This document shows positions 57,767 through 64,000 of a stretch of DNA of 64,000 nucleotides, piece by piece. Both the position numbers and the translations under genes were made by a program. How positions within the stretch are numbered: position 1 is the first letter of the stretch; every line of letters begins with the position of its first letter. Location: positions 1-64,000 of the forward strand of contig SLBA01000072.1 of assembly GCA_007126575.1 (NCBI GenBank). The letters run 5' to 3'. The stretch is from Gemmatimonadota bacterium (GTDB taxonomy: Bacteria; Gemmatimonadota; Gemmatimonadetes; Longimicrobiales; Gaopeijiaceae). The notes beneath the pieces are model-generated. The model was given only the letters and a program-made list of their open reading frames with translations. It did not search any database and had not been told where the DNA came from.

Positions 57767-58744
57767 TCACGGCTCGAGTTCGGCCACATGCACGAGCGCG
57801 TCCCCCCGGTTCACGTGCGGCTGGCGGGTCAGGCCGATCACGATCCCGGGCACTCGCGAGCGCACCCGCAGGATCCGGTCGCCGAAGGCGTCCTTGATCA
57901 CCCCGAGGCGTGCACCCTTCTCGACCCGGTCCCCGGGCTCCACGTCGAGCCGGACGAGACCGCTGCGGCCGGCCCGGATCCAGCTGCTCCGCTCCGATCG
58001 GAGGGGAGGCGGGGGGCTCGGGGCGCCCGACGAGGCCTTCCGCATCCCGAGGGCCTCCATGACGCGAAGGACCCCCCGGGTGCCCTGATCGATCGCGGCC
58101 CGATTGAAGCGACCGGCCTCTCCCCCCTCGAAGACCAGGACATGCGCCCCGGCCGCGGTGGCCGCGGCTCGAAGGGAGCCGTCGCGGCTCGCGGCCTGCA
58201 CGATGATCGGTGGAGCGAAGGCGAGGGCGAGACGACGGGTCTCGGGGTCCGTGAAATCGCCCCTGAGCTGGGCGAGGTTCGTACGGTCGTCGGAGCCGGT
58301 GTGCAGGTCGATCCCGGCCTCGCACCCCTCGACCACTTCGTTCATCAGCAGGTGGGCGAGCCGGGCGGCGAGCGAGCCCCGCCGGGATCCGGGAAAAGAT
58401 CGGTTCAGGTCCCGCCGGTCGGGAAGGTATCGGGACTGCGTGATGAAGCCGAAGACGTTCACGATCGGTACGGCCAGCAGGGTCCCGTTGAGCCTTCGGG
58501 GCGGGGACTCGGCCAGCACCTGCCGGATGATCTCGATGCCGTTCAACTCATCGCCGTGGATCGCGGCCGAGAGCCAGATCCTGGGACCCGGACGGGTGCC
58601 GCGGATCACCTCGACCGGGATCGAGATCTCGGCGCCCGTGGCCAGCCGGCCGGCGGGGAGCTGGATCCTGCGTCGTTCTCCGGGAGGGACCTCGACGCCA
58701 CCCACCACGACGGGAGCGCCATCCCGTTCGACCCCCGGGGTCAT
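57767..58744 (-). CDS. Succinylglutamate-desuccinylase/aspartoacylase-like deacylase (AstE family)
   Basis: A 325-residue zinc enzyme. The metal motif is [10 protein letters not shown], with DLNRSFPG and [11 protein letters not shown] further on. An additional C-terminal domain of about 85 residues (240-325) has a biotinyl-like beta fold ([20 protein letters not shown]). Such proteins accompany RimK in some bacteria. Reaction: removal of an acyl group from an amino acid or peptide; target unknown. Its ATG overlaps the rimK stop by 4 bases. Confidence 0.85.
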
Positions 58745-59670
58745 GCGCGGACCCGGTCCTTGCGATTGCCACGGGGTGCGCGGTTCTCGATGAACTCGAT
58801 GATCTTCCCGGCCACGTCGATCCCGGTCGCCTTCTCGATCCCCTCGAGGCCCGGCGAGGAGTTCACCTCGATCACCACGGGCCCGCGCTCCGCCCGAAGC
58901 ATGTCGACCCCCGCCACCGAGAGGCCCAGCGCCTTGGCGGCCTGGGCCGCGGTCTTCTTCTCGGTCGCCGTGAGCTTCACCGCCTCGGCACGCCCCCCGC
59001 GGTGAAGATTCGACCGGAATTCCCCCGGCGCCGCGTGCCGCACCATCGCGGCCACCACCTTCCCGTCGATCACGATCACGCGCAGGTCGCTTCCCCCCGC
59101 CTCCTTGATGAATTCCTGCACCAGGATGTTCGCATCCAGCTGCCGCAAGGCGCCGATCACGGACTCGGCGGCCTTGCGGGTCTCGGCCAGGACCACGCCG
59201 AGCCCCTGGGTGCCCTCGAGGAGCTTGACGATCAGCGGGGTGCCCCCGACCCGGTTGATGAGGCCCTTGGCGTGCTTCGCGTCGTGAGCGAAGGTCGTGA
59301 TCGGGAGTCGGACCTTCGCCCGAGACAGGATCTGGATCGAGCGCAGCTTGTCGCGGGCCCGGGTGATCGCCTGCGACTCGTTCGCCGTGAAGACGCCCAT
59401 CATCTCGAACTGTCGGACCAGGGCTGTCCCGTAGAAGGTGTACGAGGCTCCGATCCGGGGGATCACCGCGTCGAACTCCAGCTCCTCCTCGGTGGCGTTC
59501 CGGTCGGCGACGAGATCCTGGTACAGGACCCGCGGACGTGCCTCGTTGATCTCCATGTAGGCCCGCAGGTAGTTGATCACCCGGACTTCGTGGTCGCGCT
59601 CGAGGGCGGCTTCCACCAGCCGGTTGGTCGAGTACAGCGAGGCCTTTCGCGAAAGGATTCCGATCTTCAT
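58741..59670 (-). CDS. rimK: RimK-type ATP-grasp ligase
   Basis: A 309-residue ATP-grasp enzyme. RimK adds glutamate residues to the C-terminus of ribosomal protein S6 in E. coli and Pseudomonas. ATP-grasp hallmarks are [40 protein letters not shown] and the C-terminal magnesium site [18 protein letters not shown]. Length matches RimK. It overlaps the zinc protease upstream and the AstE-like gene downstream by 4 bases each, forming a tight module. Confidence 0.9.
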
Positions 59671-60152
59671 GGGCTGGGCTCCGTTCGATCCGGAGTGTCC
59701 GGTCGAGGGTTCTGGAGGTAGGAGCTGCCGGCATCCACGAGGAAGCGGCGGCGAAGGGCGGTGCGTCCGATCAGCATGCGGAATCCCATCCGGTCGCGCC
59801 GGGTGAGGGTGAGTTCGACCGGAAAGGTCGATTCTCCGATCCGGATCGGGGTCAGGATCACGGGTCGGCGCTGGGATTCGCCCGTCGACGAGCGCACGTC
59901 CCGCTCCTCGACGAGGGGGGCCGAGACACGCAGGTGGCCGGCCGTCGAGCGCTGGAGCGGGTACACTGTGAACTCGACGATGTCCCGATCGTCCCGACGA
60001 GTGATCCGGAGGTCGGCCGCGTGCAGCGATGACGTCCGGGCTCCCGTGTCGACCTTCGCCTTGATCGACGCGACTCCCAGGTCGGGAAGGGCGGCCCACT
60101 CCCGCCATCCGACCAGGGGGAGCGAAGAAGACGGCGAGAGTTTCTGGCTCAT
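59667..60152 (-). CDS. Retropepsin-like ATP-dependent zinc protease (RimB-like)
   Basis: A 161-residue protein of the RimK-associated protease family (Zn_protease, retropepsin-like fold). The motif [13 protein letters not shown] near residue 33-45 carries the catalytic [18 protein letters not shown] lies near the C-terminus. The Pseudomonas rim locus encodes a related protease that works against RimK glutamylation. It is first in the module. The ATG at 60152 is chosen; a GTG at 60167 is possible. It might trim the poly-glutamate tail. Confidence 0.83.
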
Positions 60153-60248
60153 GATGGGTCCGGGCACGCTGAGAAGGGCTCACGCCGGGGCCCCTGGGTC
60201 CTCCGTCGGGGGGCTCCCGGGATCTCACGAATTCCACTGCCCCCGAAA

Positions 60249-60467
60249 CTAACCATCCCTCGGGGTTTCCAGGAGGGCGCTCCGTCCGCACGAAGGGCAC
60301 AGGAGCCAGTGCCGACGCCTCACGTACGCGACCTGGGGGTTCGGCTCGATCCGCTCGGCAAGGAGCGTCCGATCGCACCGCGGGCACCGTGCCGTCCGCG
60401 AATGTGCCCATTCCTCCCGGATCCCCACCATTTCCATGCGCGAAAAGACGCTGGGCTCTTCGGTCAT
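60249..60467 (-). CDS. Small zinc-ribbon protein
   Basis: A 72-residue protein with two Cys pairs, CPRC and CPSC, 28 residues apart, which form a zinc ribbon. The N-terminal part ([20 protein letters not shown]) is a short helix. No DNA-binding or enzymatic motif beyond the ribbon. It could be a small regulatory or accessory factor. The start ATG at 60467 is based on the family-like domain beginning. Confidence 0.65.
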
Positions 60468-60961: not shown

Positions 60962-61246
60962 ATGAACAAGTCCGAACTCGTGGATGCCCTGGCGAATGAA
61001 ACGGGAATGACGAAGGCCGACTCCGGTCGGACCATCGACGCCCTGTTCGCCACCGACTCCGGGATTATCGCCAAGGCCCTCAAGAAGGGGAACCGGGTTC
61101 AGATCACCGGATTCGGAACGTTCGAGAGCAAGAAGCGGAAGGCCCGCACCGGTCGCAACCCCCGCACCGGTGAGACGATCAAGATTGCAGCCACCAAGAC
61201 GCCGAGCTTCCGCGCCGGCAAGGGGCTGAAGGACGCCGTGAAGTAA
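60962..61246 (+). CDS. HU-family DNA-binding protein
   Basis: A 94-residue nucleoid protein with the HU hallmarks [38 protein letters not shown] (the DNA-binding arm, in part) and [12 protein letters not shown]. It shapes and compacts DNA as a dimer. GAGGAG lies 8 bases before the ATG. It is monocistronic, followed by a strong hairpin. Whether it is HU or a specific IHF-like paralogue is not decided by sequence. Confidence 0.93.
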
Positions 61247-61288
61247 GCGCTGCGTGATCGCCGGTTCCCGATGCAGGGGACCTCACCG

Positions 61289-61323
61289 AGGCCCCGCTCC
61301 CGAACACCGGGAGCGGGGCCTTT
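61289..61323. terminator. Terminator hairpin after HU
   Basis: AGGCCCCGCTCCCG (61289-61302) and CGGGAGCGGGGCCT (61308-61321) form a perfect 14-bp stem with a 5-base loop, then TTT. It lies between HU and the convergent helicase-like gene, 5 bases from the end of the latter, and may serve both. Confidence 0.8.
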
Positions 61324-61327
61324 CGGT

Positions 61328-62968
61328 TCAGCGGTCGCGTGATCCGCGGCCCGGTCCTCGACCGGCTCGCCCGCCCGAAGCGCGCGGACCGGAATCCTTC
61401 CCGCCGGCGCCGGGGTCACCGCGTCCGGCGGACCGGTCGTAGTCGGCCCGCACACTGCGGCCCTTCACCGTGATGCCGTTGAGCGCCTCGATCACCCGGG
61501 CCGCCACCCGCTCCGACACGTCCACGCGGGAAAAGGTGTCGCGGATGTCGATGCGGCCGATCTCGTCGCCCTTGACCCCCGCCTCCCCCGTGATCGCGCC
61601 GACCAGATCCCCGGGGCCGACCCCGTCCCGGCTACCGATCGAGAGGAAGAGGCGCAGGAAGGGTACCGGTGCGCCCGGTGCGGCGGGGCTTCGCTCCGGT
61701 TCCGATCCCACGGCGCTCGTCTTCGGTCCGCCGCTGCGGCTGCGCAGGAGCCAGGCGAGGGCGGCACTCACCTGCGGGGAGCCGAACTCGCGCACGGCGG
61801 GCTCGAGGAGTCCGTGATACGGGGCCAGGTCCGCCTCCTCGACGGCCCGCTTCACCATGTCGTGCATCCGCCGGGCGGCGTCCTCCGACGCCCGGTTCGG
61901 GGGCGAGAAGAAGTCGAGCGCGTAGCCGGCCTCGCTTCCGATCCGCCGGAGGTGAGGCACCTGGCGTGCCGGGGCGAGCACCACCCCTCCGGCGCGTGAG
62001 CCCCCGTGCCTGCGGTCGAGCTCGTCGACGTCGGTCGGCGAGCCCACCGACACGGCCACGATCGAGCCCTCGTCCGCCTCGGTGTCGATGGCGCGCCGAG
62101 CTTCCAGTGCGTCGACCGCGAGCCAGACGGGAAAGTCCGTCTCACCCGGTGCGCCCGACAGGAAGCCGTGCAGCGCCAGGAGGTCGGCGGCGTCGGCCGC
62201 ACGGTCCTCGCCCCGAAAGAAGAGGAGGGCATGGTGGGCCTCTCCGTCTCCCAGGAGCCCGTCCACGAGATCGACGAGGTCCTGTCCGGCCCCCTGCTCG
62301 GTGGCGAGGACGCGAAGGCTGCCCCGGCGGACCGGCGCCTCCTCGGGCTCAGCCGGTGTGGCCGCATCGGAGGGGATGTGGACGGCGCGGGGAAGATGGG
62401 CCTGGACGAACGCCCGGACCTCGGTCGTGATCGGGTCCGCGATCACGATCCCCTGAGCCTCTCCGGTCGGAACGGCCTCGAGCGCGTCGGAGAGGACCGT
62501 CGCCGCATGCGGGTCCTCGACGAGAGCGGCCGCCCCGTCCAGCACCCAGGCGGTCACCTGATCGAGCTTGACGTCGGCGGTGCGGGTGGCCGCCAGGAGG
62601 TCGGCGGGGGTGGCGAAGAGGATGTCGGCCCGTCCCGGGAGCGCGAAGCTCCCCGAGAGCGCCGCCACGCGGTGCCCGGTCGTGATCGCGGCCCGAGCGA
62701 GCGCTCGCGCCTTCCGCACCGCCTCCGGGCGCTCGGGCACCAGAACCACGGCAAGGGGGCTCCCACTCCCGGTGTCGAGCCGATCCAGGAGCGCGGTGCC
62801 GTACGCCACCAGGACGCCGGCGCCCGGTCCGCCTCGGACCAGGGCGGAGTTGCCCTTGCGAAGCGTCGGAATCGCCTCTTCCTGAAGATGGGTGGGTTGC
62901 TCGATCCCCTCGGCGATAAGACTCTCGATCAGCTCGGGCCTCAGCCCGAGATCCTCAAACGATTCCAT
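61328..62968 (-). CDS. DEAD-box-helicase-like protein with lost ATPase motifs and DbpA RNA-binding domain
   Basis: A 546-residue protein aligned with DEAD-box RNA helicases. The Q-motif region is kept (PTHLQEEAIP, 25-34). Walker A is GGPGAGVL (46-53), without the Lys-Thr. DEAD is DGAA (144-147). The SAT and HRxGRxGR motifs are not recognisable. A C-terminal DbpA-like domain (about 440-515) is intact: LFLSIGSRDGVGPGDLVGAI and IGRIDIRDTFSRVDV. A basic Gly/Arg tail follows. ATP hydrolysis is unlikely, so it may work as an RNA-binding chaperone for rRNA or ribosome assembly. Confidence 0.85.
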   Translation of the reverse strand: MESFEDLGLRPELIESLIAEGIEQPTHLQEEAIPTLRKGNSALVRGGPGAGVLVAYGTALLDRLDTGSGSPLAVVLVPERPEAVRKARALARAAITTGHRVAALSGSFALPGRADILFATPADLLAATRTADVKLDQVTAWVLDGAAALVEDPHAATVLSDALEAVPTGEAQGIVIADPITTEVRAFVQAHLPRAVHIPSDAATPAEPEEAPVRRGSLRVLATEQGAGQDLVDLVDGLLGDGEAHHALLFFRGEDRAADAADLLALHGFLSGAPGETDFPVWLAVDALEARRAIDTEADEGSIVAVSVGSPTDVDELDRRHGGSRAGGVVLAPARQVPHLRRIGSEAGYALDFFSPPNRASEDAARRMHDMVKRAVEEADLAPYHGLLEPAVREFGSPQVSAALAWLLRSRSGGPKTSAVGSEPERSPAAPGAPVPFLRLFLSIGSRDGVGPGDLVGAITGEAGVKGDEIGRIDIRDTFSRVDVSERVAARVIEALNGITVKGRSVRADYDRSAGRGDPGAGGKDSGPRASGGRAGRGPGRGSRDR

Positions 62969-63114: not shown

Positions 63115-63417
63115 TCAGGTGGGGTCGCCGGAGCCCGGTCCCCCCGTGTCCTCGGGCTCGTAGGGGAGCCGGTTCAGGAAGCGCTGAATCTCGTAGTCCA
63201 TGCGCGAGGTTCGCAGGCGATCGGTTTTCGCGACCACCTCGGTGTAATGGTAGTGGGGATGGGCCTCGAGCGTCACCGTCCCCTCCTCGCCGGAGTAGGT
63301 TGCGGAGTGTCCCGAAGCCTTCTTGCGGCTGAGTCCGATCCGCTCGGGCAGAATCTCTTCGGCCCGCTCGAGAACCTCACCGGGACTGATCGCGGTCTTC
63401 CGTGCATACCCTGCCAT
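63115..63417 (-). CDS. Small protein of unknown function
   Basis: A 100-residue soluble protein. The ATG is set by GAGG 6 bases upstream. It has a basic helical start (KTAISPGEVLERAEEIL), a central histidine-rich strand (LEAHPHYHYTEVVAKTD) and a C-terminal helix (DYEIQRFLNRL). The histidines could bind a metal, but no family is recognised. It lies 19 bases downstream of the DsbA-like gene and could be co-transcribed. Confidence 0.65.
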   Translation of the reverse strand: MAGYARKTAISPGEVLERAEEILPERIGLSRKKASGHSATYSGEEGTVTLEAHPHYHYTEVVAKTDRLRTSRMDYEIQRFLNRLPYEPEDTGGPGSGDPT

Positions 63418-63436: not shown

Positions 63437-64000
63437 CTAGGAGCGTCCTGCATCGCTCAGGAATATCTGTACCTTGTCGGCGCCGTGGAACCCCTCGAGC
63501 CGAGACGCCCCCTCGATGAGGGTGGGAGTCCCCCGAACGGCCTCCCCGAACAGAGCCTCCCGGCACGCTTCGACATCGGGTTTGAACCGGTCGACCCCGA
63601 GGACGGTCCGGCACTCCGCGGGGTCGAGTCCCTCGGCTTCGGCGATCGACACGAGTTCGTCGATCCGACCCAGGTCCCGGCGCTCGACGAAGCGGGCGTG
63701 GAAGAGGGCCGAGTGGATCTCCTCGAACGCGCCCTGCTCGCGGGCGTGGAGCACGAGTTCCATCGCCTTGCGGGTGCGGGGGATGGAGGAGGGAGGGTCG
63801 AAGGGGATCTCGAGCGAGCGGGCCTCCTCGGCGAGGTGCCGGGACATTTCGCGCCAGTCGGGGTCATCGGGATCGAGCAGCGGACGCCCGGGTGGACGCA
63901 GCTCCAGGGGAATCCACTCGACCCGCACGCGCTCTTCGGGATCGAGCCAGCGCTCGAGTAGGGCGTGGGTCAGATAGGAGCCCGGGTCCACGTAGTCGAA
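63437..64000 (-). CDS. DsbA-family protein, cut by the window edge
   Basis: At least 187 residues are present and the N-terminus lies beyond 64000. The sequence FDYVDPGSYLTHALLERW at the visible start matches the DsbA/FrnE/isomerase fold, whose active site normally has CxxC at this point. Here the Cys positions read DPGS, as in 2-hydroxychromene-2-carboxylate isomerase-type members. The C-terminal cis-Pro loop GTPTLIEGASRLEGFHGAD is intact. It probably binds glutathione-like or thiol compounds. Product name and substrate are uncertain. Confidence 0.75.
   Translation of the reverse strand, partial: FDYVDPGSYLTHALLERWLDPEERVRVEWIPLELRPPGRPLLDPDDPDWREMSRHLAEEARSLEIPFDPPSSIPRTRKAMELVLHAREQGAFEEIHSALFHARFVERRDLGRIDELVSIAEAEGLDPAECRTVLGVDRFKPDVEACREALFGEAVRGTPTLIEGASRLEGFHGADKVQIFLSDAGRS

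What the first reader, a model, noticed from the sequence alone, without database searches (positions are those of the whole stretch)
61328..62968. Pseudo-DEAD-box protein that keeps its rRNA-binding domain
Walker A, DEAD, SAT and arginine-finger motifs are all lost, while the DbpA-type RNA-binding domain and Q-motif region remain. A helicase fold without ATPase motifs next to HU, and with an intact rRNA-binding domain, suggests an unrecognised ATP-independent ribosome assembly factor.
Basis: seen in the sequence. Interest (0 to 1): 0.65.

Follow-up and report, generated by a model that had tools for sequence, protein, structure and literature searches.

The report
Ancient catalytically dead bacterial RNA helicase
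A protein shaped like an RNA-unwinding enzyme, but without the parts needed to burn ATP, has been kept under selection across a whole class of bacteria, together with its RNA-gripping domain, so it probably works as an RNA-binding scaffold rather than as a motor.

Summary
Window 61328-62968 (-) encodes a 546-aa DeaD/CsdA-type protein: two RecA-like domains, a helical dimerisation-type region, a Pfam DbpA RNA-binding domain (RBD) and an R/G-rich tail. The Walker A Lys, DEAD Glu, SAT, motif V and HRxGRxxR are gone. It is not decay: none of 55 close relatives or 16 more diverged orthologues keeps a usable catalytic set, yet dN/dS is about 0.1-0.3 over both RecA domains. The family splits from intact Gemmatimonadota DEAD-DbpA paralogues with full support, and the same gene, tail-to-tail with HU, recurs in distant families, so it is an ancient orthologue. 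In the window's genome and eight single-contig relatives it is the only DbpA-domain protein: the inactive copy persists where the active one is absent.

rRNA targeting and ribosome assembly remain inference. Eukaryotic Utp25 is the nearest precedent; I found no bacterial one described.

The parts
61328..62968 (-). Pseudo-DEAD-box (DeaD/CsdA-derived) protein gene, 546 aa
62354..62968 (-). RecA1-like domain (residues 1-205): Q motif kept (F4, P25, T26, Q29); P-loop degenerate GPGAG (Lys lost); motif II DGAA; motif III lost
   Evidence: AF2
61934..62353 (-). RecA2-like domain (residues 206-345): motif V replaced, motif VI reduced to DRRH
   Evidence: AF2
61733..61933 (-). Helical region (residues 346-412) matching the DeaD dimerisation domain in relatives
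   Evidence: PF25399 in 22 of 36 family members; hhalign to intact paralogues. The window protein itself gave no PF25399 match at the threshold used.
61445..61654 (-). DbpA-type RNA-binding domain (residues 439-508)
   Evidence: PF03880 E 2e-25; only copy in the genome; guanine-pocket residues I470, G471, I473 kept
61331..61438 (-). R/G-rich basic C-terminal tail (residues 511-546)
   Evidence: sequence; tail composition
61286..61330 (.). Strong GC hairpin between the convergent HU and pseudohelicase genes, terminator-like but without a clear T-tract
   Evidence: fold -37 kcal/mol, z -6.4; not called by the terminator scan
60962..61246 (+). HU-family DNA-binding protein, convergent neighbour, conserved position
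   Evidence: PF00216; synteny
63115..63417 (-). Upstream co-directional 100-aa protein of no known family, conserved neighbour of the locus
63437..64000 (-). DSBA-like thioredoxin-fold protein (runs past the window edge), conserved upstream neighbour
   Evidence: PF01323; synteny

Best explanation
The gene encodes a pseudohelicase: a DeaD/CsdA-type DEAD-box protein that lost ATP hydrolysis and strand-separation motifs near the base of its class and was kept as a non-enzymatic RNA-binding protein. SHOWN here: full-length homology and predicted fold of a DeaD-type helicase; loss of every catalytic motif across the family; split from intact paralogues; purifying selection on the folded domains; an RBD with its guanine-binding pocket; a conserved locus. 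INFERRED: it dimerises through the helical region, binds structured RNA (rRNA being a plausible target) through its RBD and basic tail, and uses the dead RecA pair as a rigid scaffold or clamp that holds or chaperones RNA, or recruits partners, without hydrolysing ATP. In type-A members the adenine pocket may still bind a nucleotide and set the clamp's state.
For: Pfam, NCBIfam and PDB matches; orthologues in 71 of 73 same-family genomes by my count; motif tables; profile-profile homology of both pseudo groups to intact paralogues (E 3e-68 over 510 columns and 1e-55 over 472); tree without motif columns, pseudo/intact split SH-aLRT 100; dN/dS 0.08-0.31 overall; AF2 pLDDT 85.8 and Foldseek top hit DbpA 7pli E 9.6e-23; PF25399 in relatives; RBD pocket; synteny; only DbpA-domain protein in the genome.
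Against: No expression, RNA-binding or phenotype data. Dimerisation is inferred from domain homology, and the window protein itself gave no PF25399 match. No link to any ribosome component was tested. The RBD type also occurs in helicases of broader RNA substrate range, so rRNA is not compelled.
Confidence: 0.6

Rival explanations
1. ATP-independent ribosome assembly factor that docks at 23S rRNA hairpin 92, as DbpA/YxiN do, and acts as a placeholder in 50S maturation.
For: The RBD keeps the Ile/Val-Gly-x-Ile backbone pocket that reads a guanine in the YxiN and Hera complexes (PMC3695512) and has the same T-G-[DE]-x-G loop as E. coli DbpA. Utp25 shows that a pseudohelicase can be an essential ribosome factor (PMC9539457).
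Against: The protein descends from DeaD/CsdA-type helicases. Hera, with the same pocket, does not read the hairpin 92 loop, so specificity cannot be predicted from these residues. YxiN K427 is G here.
Confidence: 0.3
2. Nucleotide-sensing pseudo-ATPase: it binds an adenine nucleotide without hydrolysis, and nucleotide status switches its RNA grip.
For: F4, P25, T26 and Q29 of the Q motif and G49, G51 of the P-loop all rank in the top 10 of 205 RecA1 positions by conservation, while the Lys, Thr, Glu and SAT positions are not. Families f3 and f9 keep GxGKT (7 of 8) with the motif II Glu lost, a set expected to bind but not hydrolyse ATP. The diverged group B aligns full length without the Q motif (0 of 16), so that motif is not simply needed for the fold.
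Against: The Walker A Lys is lost in all f1 and f2 members, which usually weakens phosphate binding greatly. Conserved glycines and prolines can be structural.
Confidence: 0.3
3. Regulatory subunit that pairs with an active DEAD-box helicase of the same cell and modulates it.
For: Dimerisation-type region retained in relatives; an active RhlE-like helicase is encoded about 4 kb away in the window genome and near the locus in several relatives.
Against: The intact DeaD-type paralogue with the same domains is absent from the window genome and from eight single-contig genomes. The RhlE-like proteins lack the DbpA-type RBD.
Confidence: 0.15
4. Decaying pseudogene or mis-predicted ORF.
For: Loss of all catalytic motifs; high-GC genome in which long spurious ORFs are common.
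Against: Purifying selection on the folded domains; present in 71 of 73 same-family genomes; confident fold; conserved position.
Confidence: 0.02

Closest known systems
DeaD/CsdA-type DEAD-box RNA helicases (core + dimerisation domain + DbpA-type RBD)
   Same: Full-length architecture and homology, including the helical dimerisation region and RBD
   Different: All catalytic motifs and most core RNA-binding motifs lost
DbpA / YxiN
   Same: RBD family PF03880, guanine-pocket residues; best fold match 7pli
   Different: DbpA and YxiN have active ATPase motifs; the pseudohelicase has a dimerisation-type region before the RBD and its target RNA is untested
Hera (Thermus thermophilus)
   Same: Core, dimerisation domain, RBD and basic C-terminal tail in the same order (PMC3695512)
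   Different: Hera is an active helicase; its RBD has an extra N-terminal subdomain
Utp25/Def, eukaryotic SSU processome pseudohelicase
   Same: DEAD-box fold with dispensable or lost motifs, conserved RNA-related protein (PMC9539457)
   Different: Eukaryotic, accessory region at the N-terminus rather than a C-terminal DbpA-type RBD, essential small-subunit factor; independent origin is inferred

Membership tests
DEAD-box RNA helicase (active) | Walker A GxGKT | tested here: not met
   GPGAGVL in the window protein; Lys in 7 of 55 type A, 0 of 16 type B, 24 of 24 intact
DEAD-box RNA helicase (active) | Motif II DEAD with catalytic Glu | tested here: not met
   DGAA; Glu 0 of 55 type A, 1 of 16 type B
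DEAD-box RNA helicase (active) | Motif III SAT and motif VI HRxGRxxR | tested here: not met
DEAD-box RNA helicase (active) | Q motif | tested here: met
   F4, P25, T26, Q29; Gln in 55 of 55 type A
DEAD-box RNA helicase (active) | RNA-dependent ATPase and unwinding | not testable with these tools
   needs biochemistry
DeaD/CsdA lineage (by descent) | Two RecA domains, dimerisation domain, DbpA-type RBD | tested here: met
   hhalign over 510 columns; AF2; PF25399 in 22 of 36 relatives, though not in the window protein itself
DbpA/YxiN hairpin-92 binders | PF03880 RBD with guanine pocket I-G-x-I | tested here: met
DbpA/YxiN hairpin-92 binders | Specific binding of 23S hairpin 92 | not testable with these tools
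   needs a binding assay
Pseudohelicase (Utp25-like concept) | Helicase fold, catalytic motifs absent across orthologues, gene kept by selection | tested here: met
Pseudohelicase (Utp25-like concept) | Function independent of catalysis shown in vivo | not testable with these tools
   needs genetics

The most novel reading that the evidence does not exclude
A class-wide bacterial pseudohelicase whose former ATPase site became a non-hydrolytic adenine-nucleotide sensor controlling an RNA clamp, working with an uncharacterised 100-aa partner encoded just upstream.
Probability: 0.25. Interest if true: 0.75.

Novelty: new variant of a known kind. Interest (0 to 1): 0.58.

Why it matters
Bacterial DEAD-box proteins are normally discussed as ATP-driven remodelers. 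A class-wide lineage that discarded catalysis but kept the fold, the RNA-binding domain and (in type A) the adenine-reading residues, and that persists in most genomes of its family without the active paralogue, offers a natural separation of the RNA-binding role from the motor role. The genus Gemmatimonas appears to carry it (L014, a Gemmatimonas phototrophica MAG) and, to my knowledge, has cultured members, so the idea can be tested directly.

Tried and rejected
Pseudogene or spurious ORF: rejected by dN/dS, synteny and fold. Descent from DbpA proper: rejected in favour of the DeaD/CsdA type. HU operon link: rejected, convergent genes. Repeated independent loss in groups A and B: disfavoured by the tree without motif columns and by the shared HU locus. 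Fold and family searches for the upstream 100-aa protein gave nothing significant. A sigma-70 promoter scan found nothing. One IQ-TREE run timed out and one script failed on a thread setting. A first neighbour search used HU in a wrong frame and was redone. Sampling of other phyla through L015/L016 was not possible, so absence outside Gemmatimonadota is not shown. The plasmid collection held no full-length relative. Papers: no bacterial pseudo-DEAD-box family found in the searches made.

Full report
What is there. The ORF at 61328-62968 (-) encodes 546 aa. Pfam sees the DbpA RNA-binding domain strongly and the DEAD domain weakly. NCBIfam gives matches far below the curated cut-offs to DbpA, CshA and DeaD, and phmmer against the PDB matches DEAD-box proteins over the first 200 residues. 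The genome is a 3.68 Mb assembly in 205 contigs, 96.5% complete; its nearest named relatives are Gemmatimonadota MAGs.

The loss. Against the intact alignment the motifs read: Q PTHLQ (kept), I RGGPGAGVLV (Lys lost), II LDGAAA (Glu lost), III ADP, VI DRRH. Across 55 type-A relatives (families f1, f2, f3, f9) the Walker A Lys is kept in 7, the DEAD Glu in 0, the SAT Thr in 1, and motif VI Arg2 and Arg3 in 0. The 24 intact DEAD-DbpA proteins keep all of these. The seven with Lys are all in f3 (5 of 5) and f9 (2 of 3). Because all of type A lacks the Glu while only f1, f2 and one f9 member lack the Lys, loss of hydrolysis probably came before loss of the P-loop Lys (inference).

A family, not a wreck. 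A search of 298 phylum genomes with the protein gave matches better than any intact paralogue's in 71 of 73 same-family genomes (my count, a few of them fragments at contig ends; the two without are G096 and G233). A more diverged group B lives in families f4, f5 and f7. Profile-profile comparison links A to intact proteins over 510 columns (E 3e-68), A to B over 464 (E 7e-79) and B to intact over 472 (E 1e-55). A quick maximum-likelihood tree with the motif columns removed separates A+B from intact proteins at SH-aLRT 100; the branching of f9 between A and B is unresolved there. An earlier FastTree agrees in outline. Pairwise dN/dS is 0.08-0.31 for the whole gene, with both RecA domains similar and the RBD lower (0.035-0.175). 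Some pairs have high or saturated dS, so the close pairs carry the weight.

Position. A DSBA-like gene and a 100-aa gene lie just upstream on the same strand in nearly all f1 loci and in many f2 loci. HU is convergent downstream in many f1 loci and in f2, f3 and f9, and also in group-B loci of f7 (L073, L075) and f4 (L095, L096); none of the intact paralogue loci shows HU nearby. This makes A and B positional orthologues. A 13-pair GC hairpin sits between the gene and HU (z -6.4); it lacks a T-tract, and the terminator scan did not call it.

The inactive copy persists alone. PF03880 occurs once in the window genome, in this gene, and once in the single-contig genomes G017, G058, G070, G075, G165, G157, G183 and G124, in each case at the pseudohelicase. 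By my count, 12 of 73 f1 genomes have more than one DbpA-domain protein. The window genome still holds intact DEAD-box helicases without this domain, such as C203:67264 and C108:6080.

Fold. AlphaFold2 on 36 family members gives pLDDT 85.8 with two RecA-like domains, a helical bundle and the RBD; the linker and tail are low-confidence. Foldseek's best PDB match is full-length DbpA (7pli, E 9.6e-23), with CshA also near the top. The high rmsd probably reflects different domain orientation, which one model does not settle. PF25399, the DeaD dimerisation domain, matches 22 of 36 members but not the window protein at the threshold used.

RNA and nucleotide sites. In YxiN and Hera the RBD reads a guanine through backbone amides of I436, G437, I439 and V461, G462, V464 respectively (PMC3695512). 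The window protein has I470, G471, I473; the Gly is invariant in 55 of 55 A and 16 of 16 B, and position 472 is Arg or Lys in all A, as in E. coli DbpA. Target specificity cannot be read from this: Hera has the same pocket but does not read the hairpin-92 loop. In RecA1 the best conserved positions include Q29 (1st), F4 (4th), P25 (7th), G49 (8th), G51 (9th) and T26 (10th of 205), while the Lys, Thr, Glu and SAT positions rank between 64th and 142nd. Random sets of RecA1 positions never reached the mean conservation of the pocket set in 20,000 draws, although the positions were partly chosen after looking at the invariant list, so this number is biased. Group B lost the Q motif and still aligns full length, which argues against a purely structural role.

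Reading. The best-supported account is a pseudohelicase kept as an RNA-binding scaffold, possibly dimeric, and in type A possibly still nucleotide-binding. The ribosome is a plausible but untested target. The eukaryotic precedent is Utp25 (PMC9539457). Searches of the held library found no bacterial counterpart, which is weak evidence of novelty because most subscription papers are missing.

Noticed in passing
window 63115-63417 (-): A 100-aa protein of no Pfam or NCBIfam family, about 60-76% identical across family f1 and more conserved than the pseudohelicase, sits directly upstream in most loci; AF2 predicts a confident beta-alpha-beta4-alpha fold (pLDDT 89) with no significant PDB match.
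   Followed up: partly
window 63437-64000 (-): The DSBA-like neighbour begins FDYVDPGSYL in the part seen, without a CxxC there, so it may be of the HCCA-isomerase/FrnE type rather than a thiol oxidase.
   Followed up: no
L087 7120-8433 (contig C203 beyond the window): An intact RhlE-like DEAD-box helicase lies about 4 kb upstream of the pseudohelicase; a homologue of 57-75% identity also lies near it in about ten other loci.
   Followed up: partly
window 58741-60411 (-): A RimK-like ATP-grasp ligase (by sequence) and a small protease-like ORF lie on the far side of HU; the RimK-like gene is near the locus in G100 and G093 too. RimK modifies ribosomal protein S6 in E. coli (own knowledge).
   Followed up: no
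L071, L076, L078, L080, L082, L085, L098, L099, L114: In family f5 the diverged pseudohelicase is no longer beside HU, while intact DeaD-DbpA paralogues are common there.
   Followed up: partly
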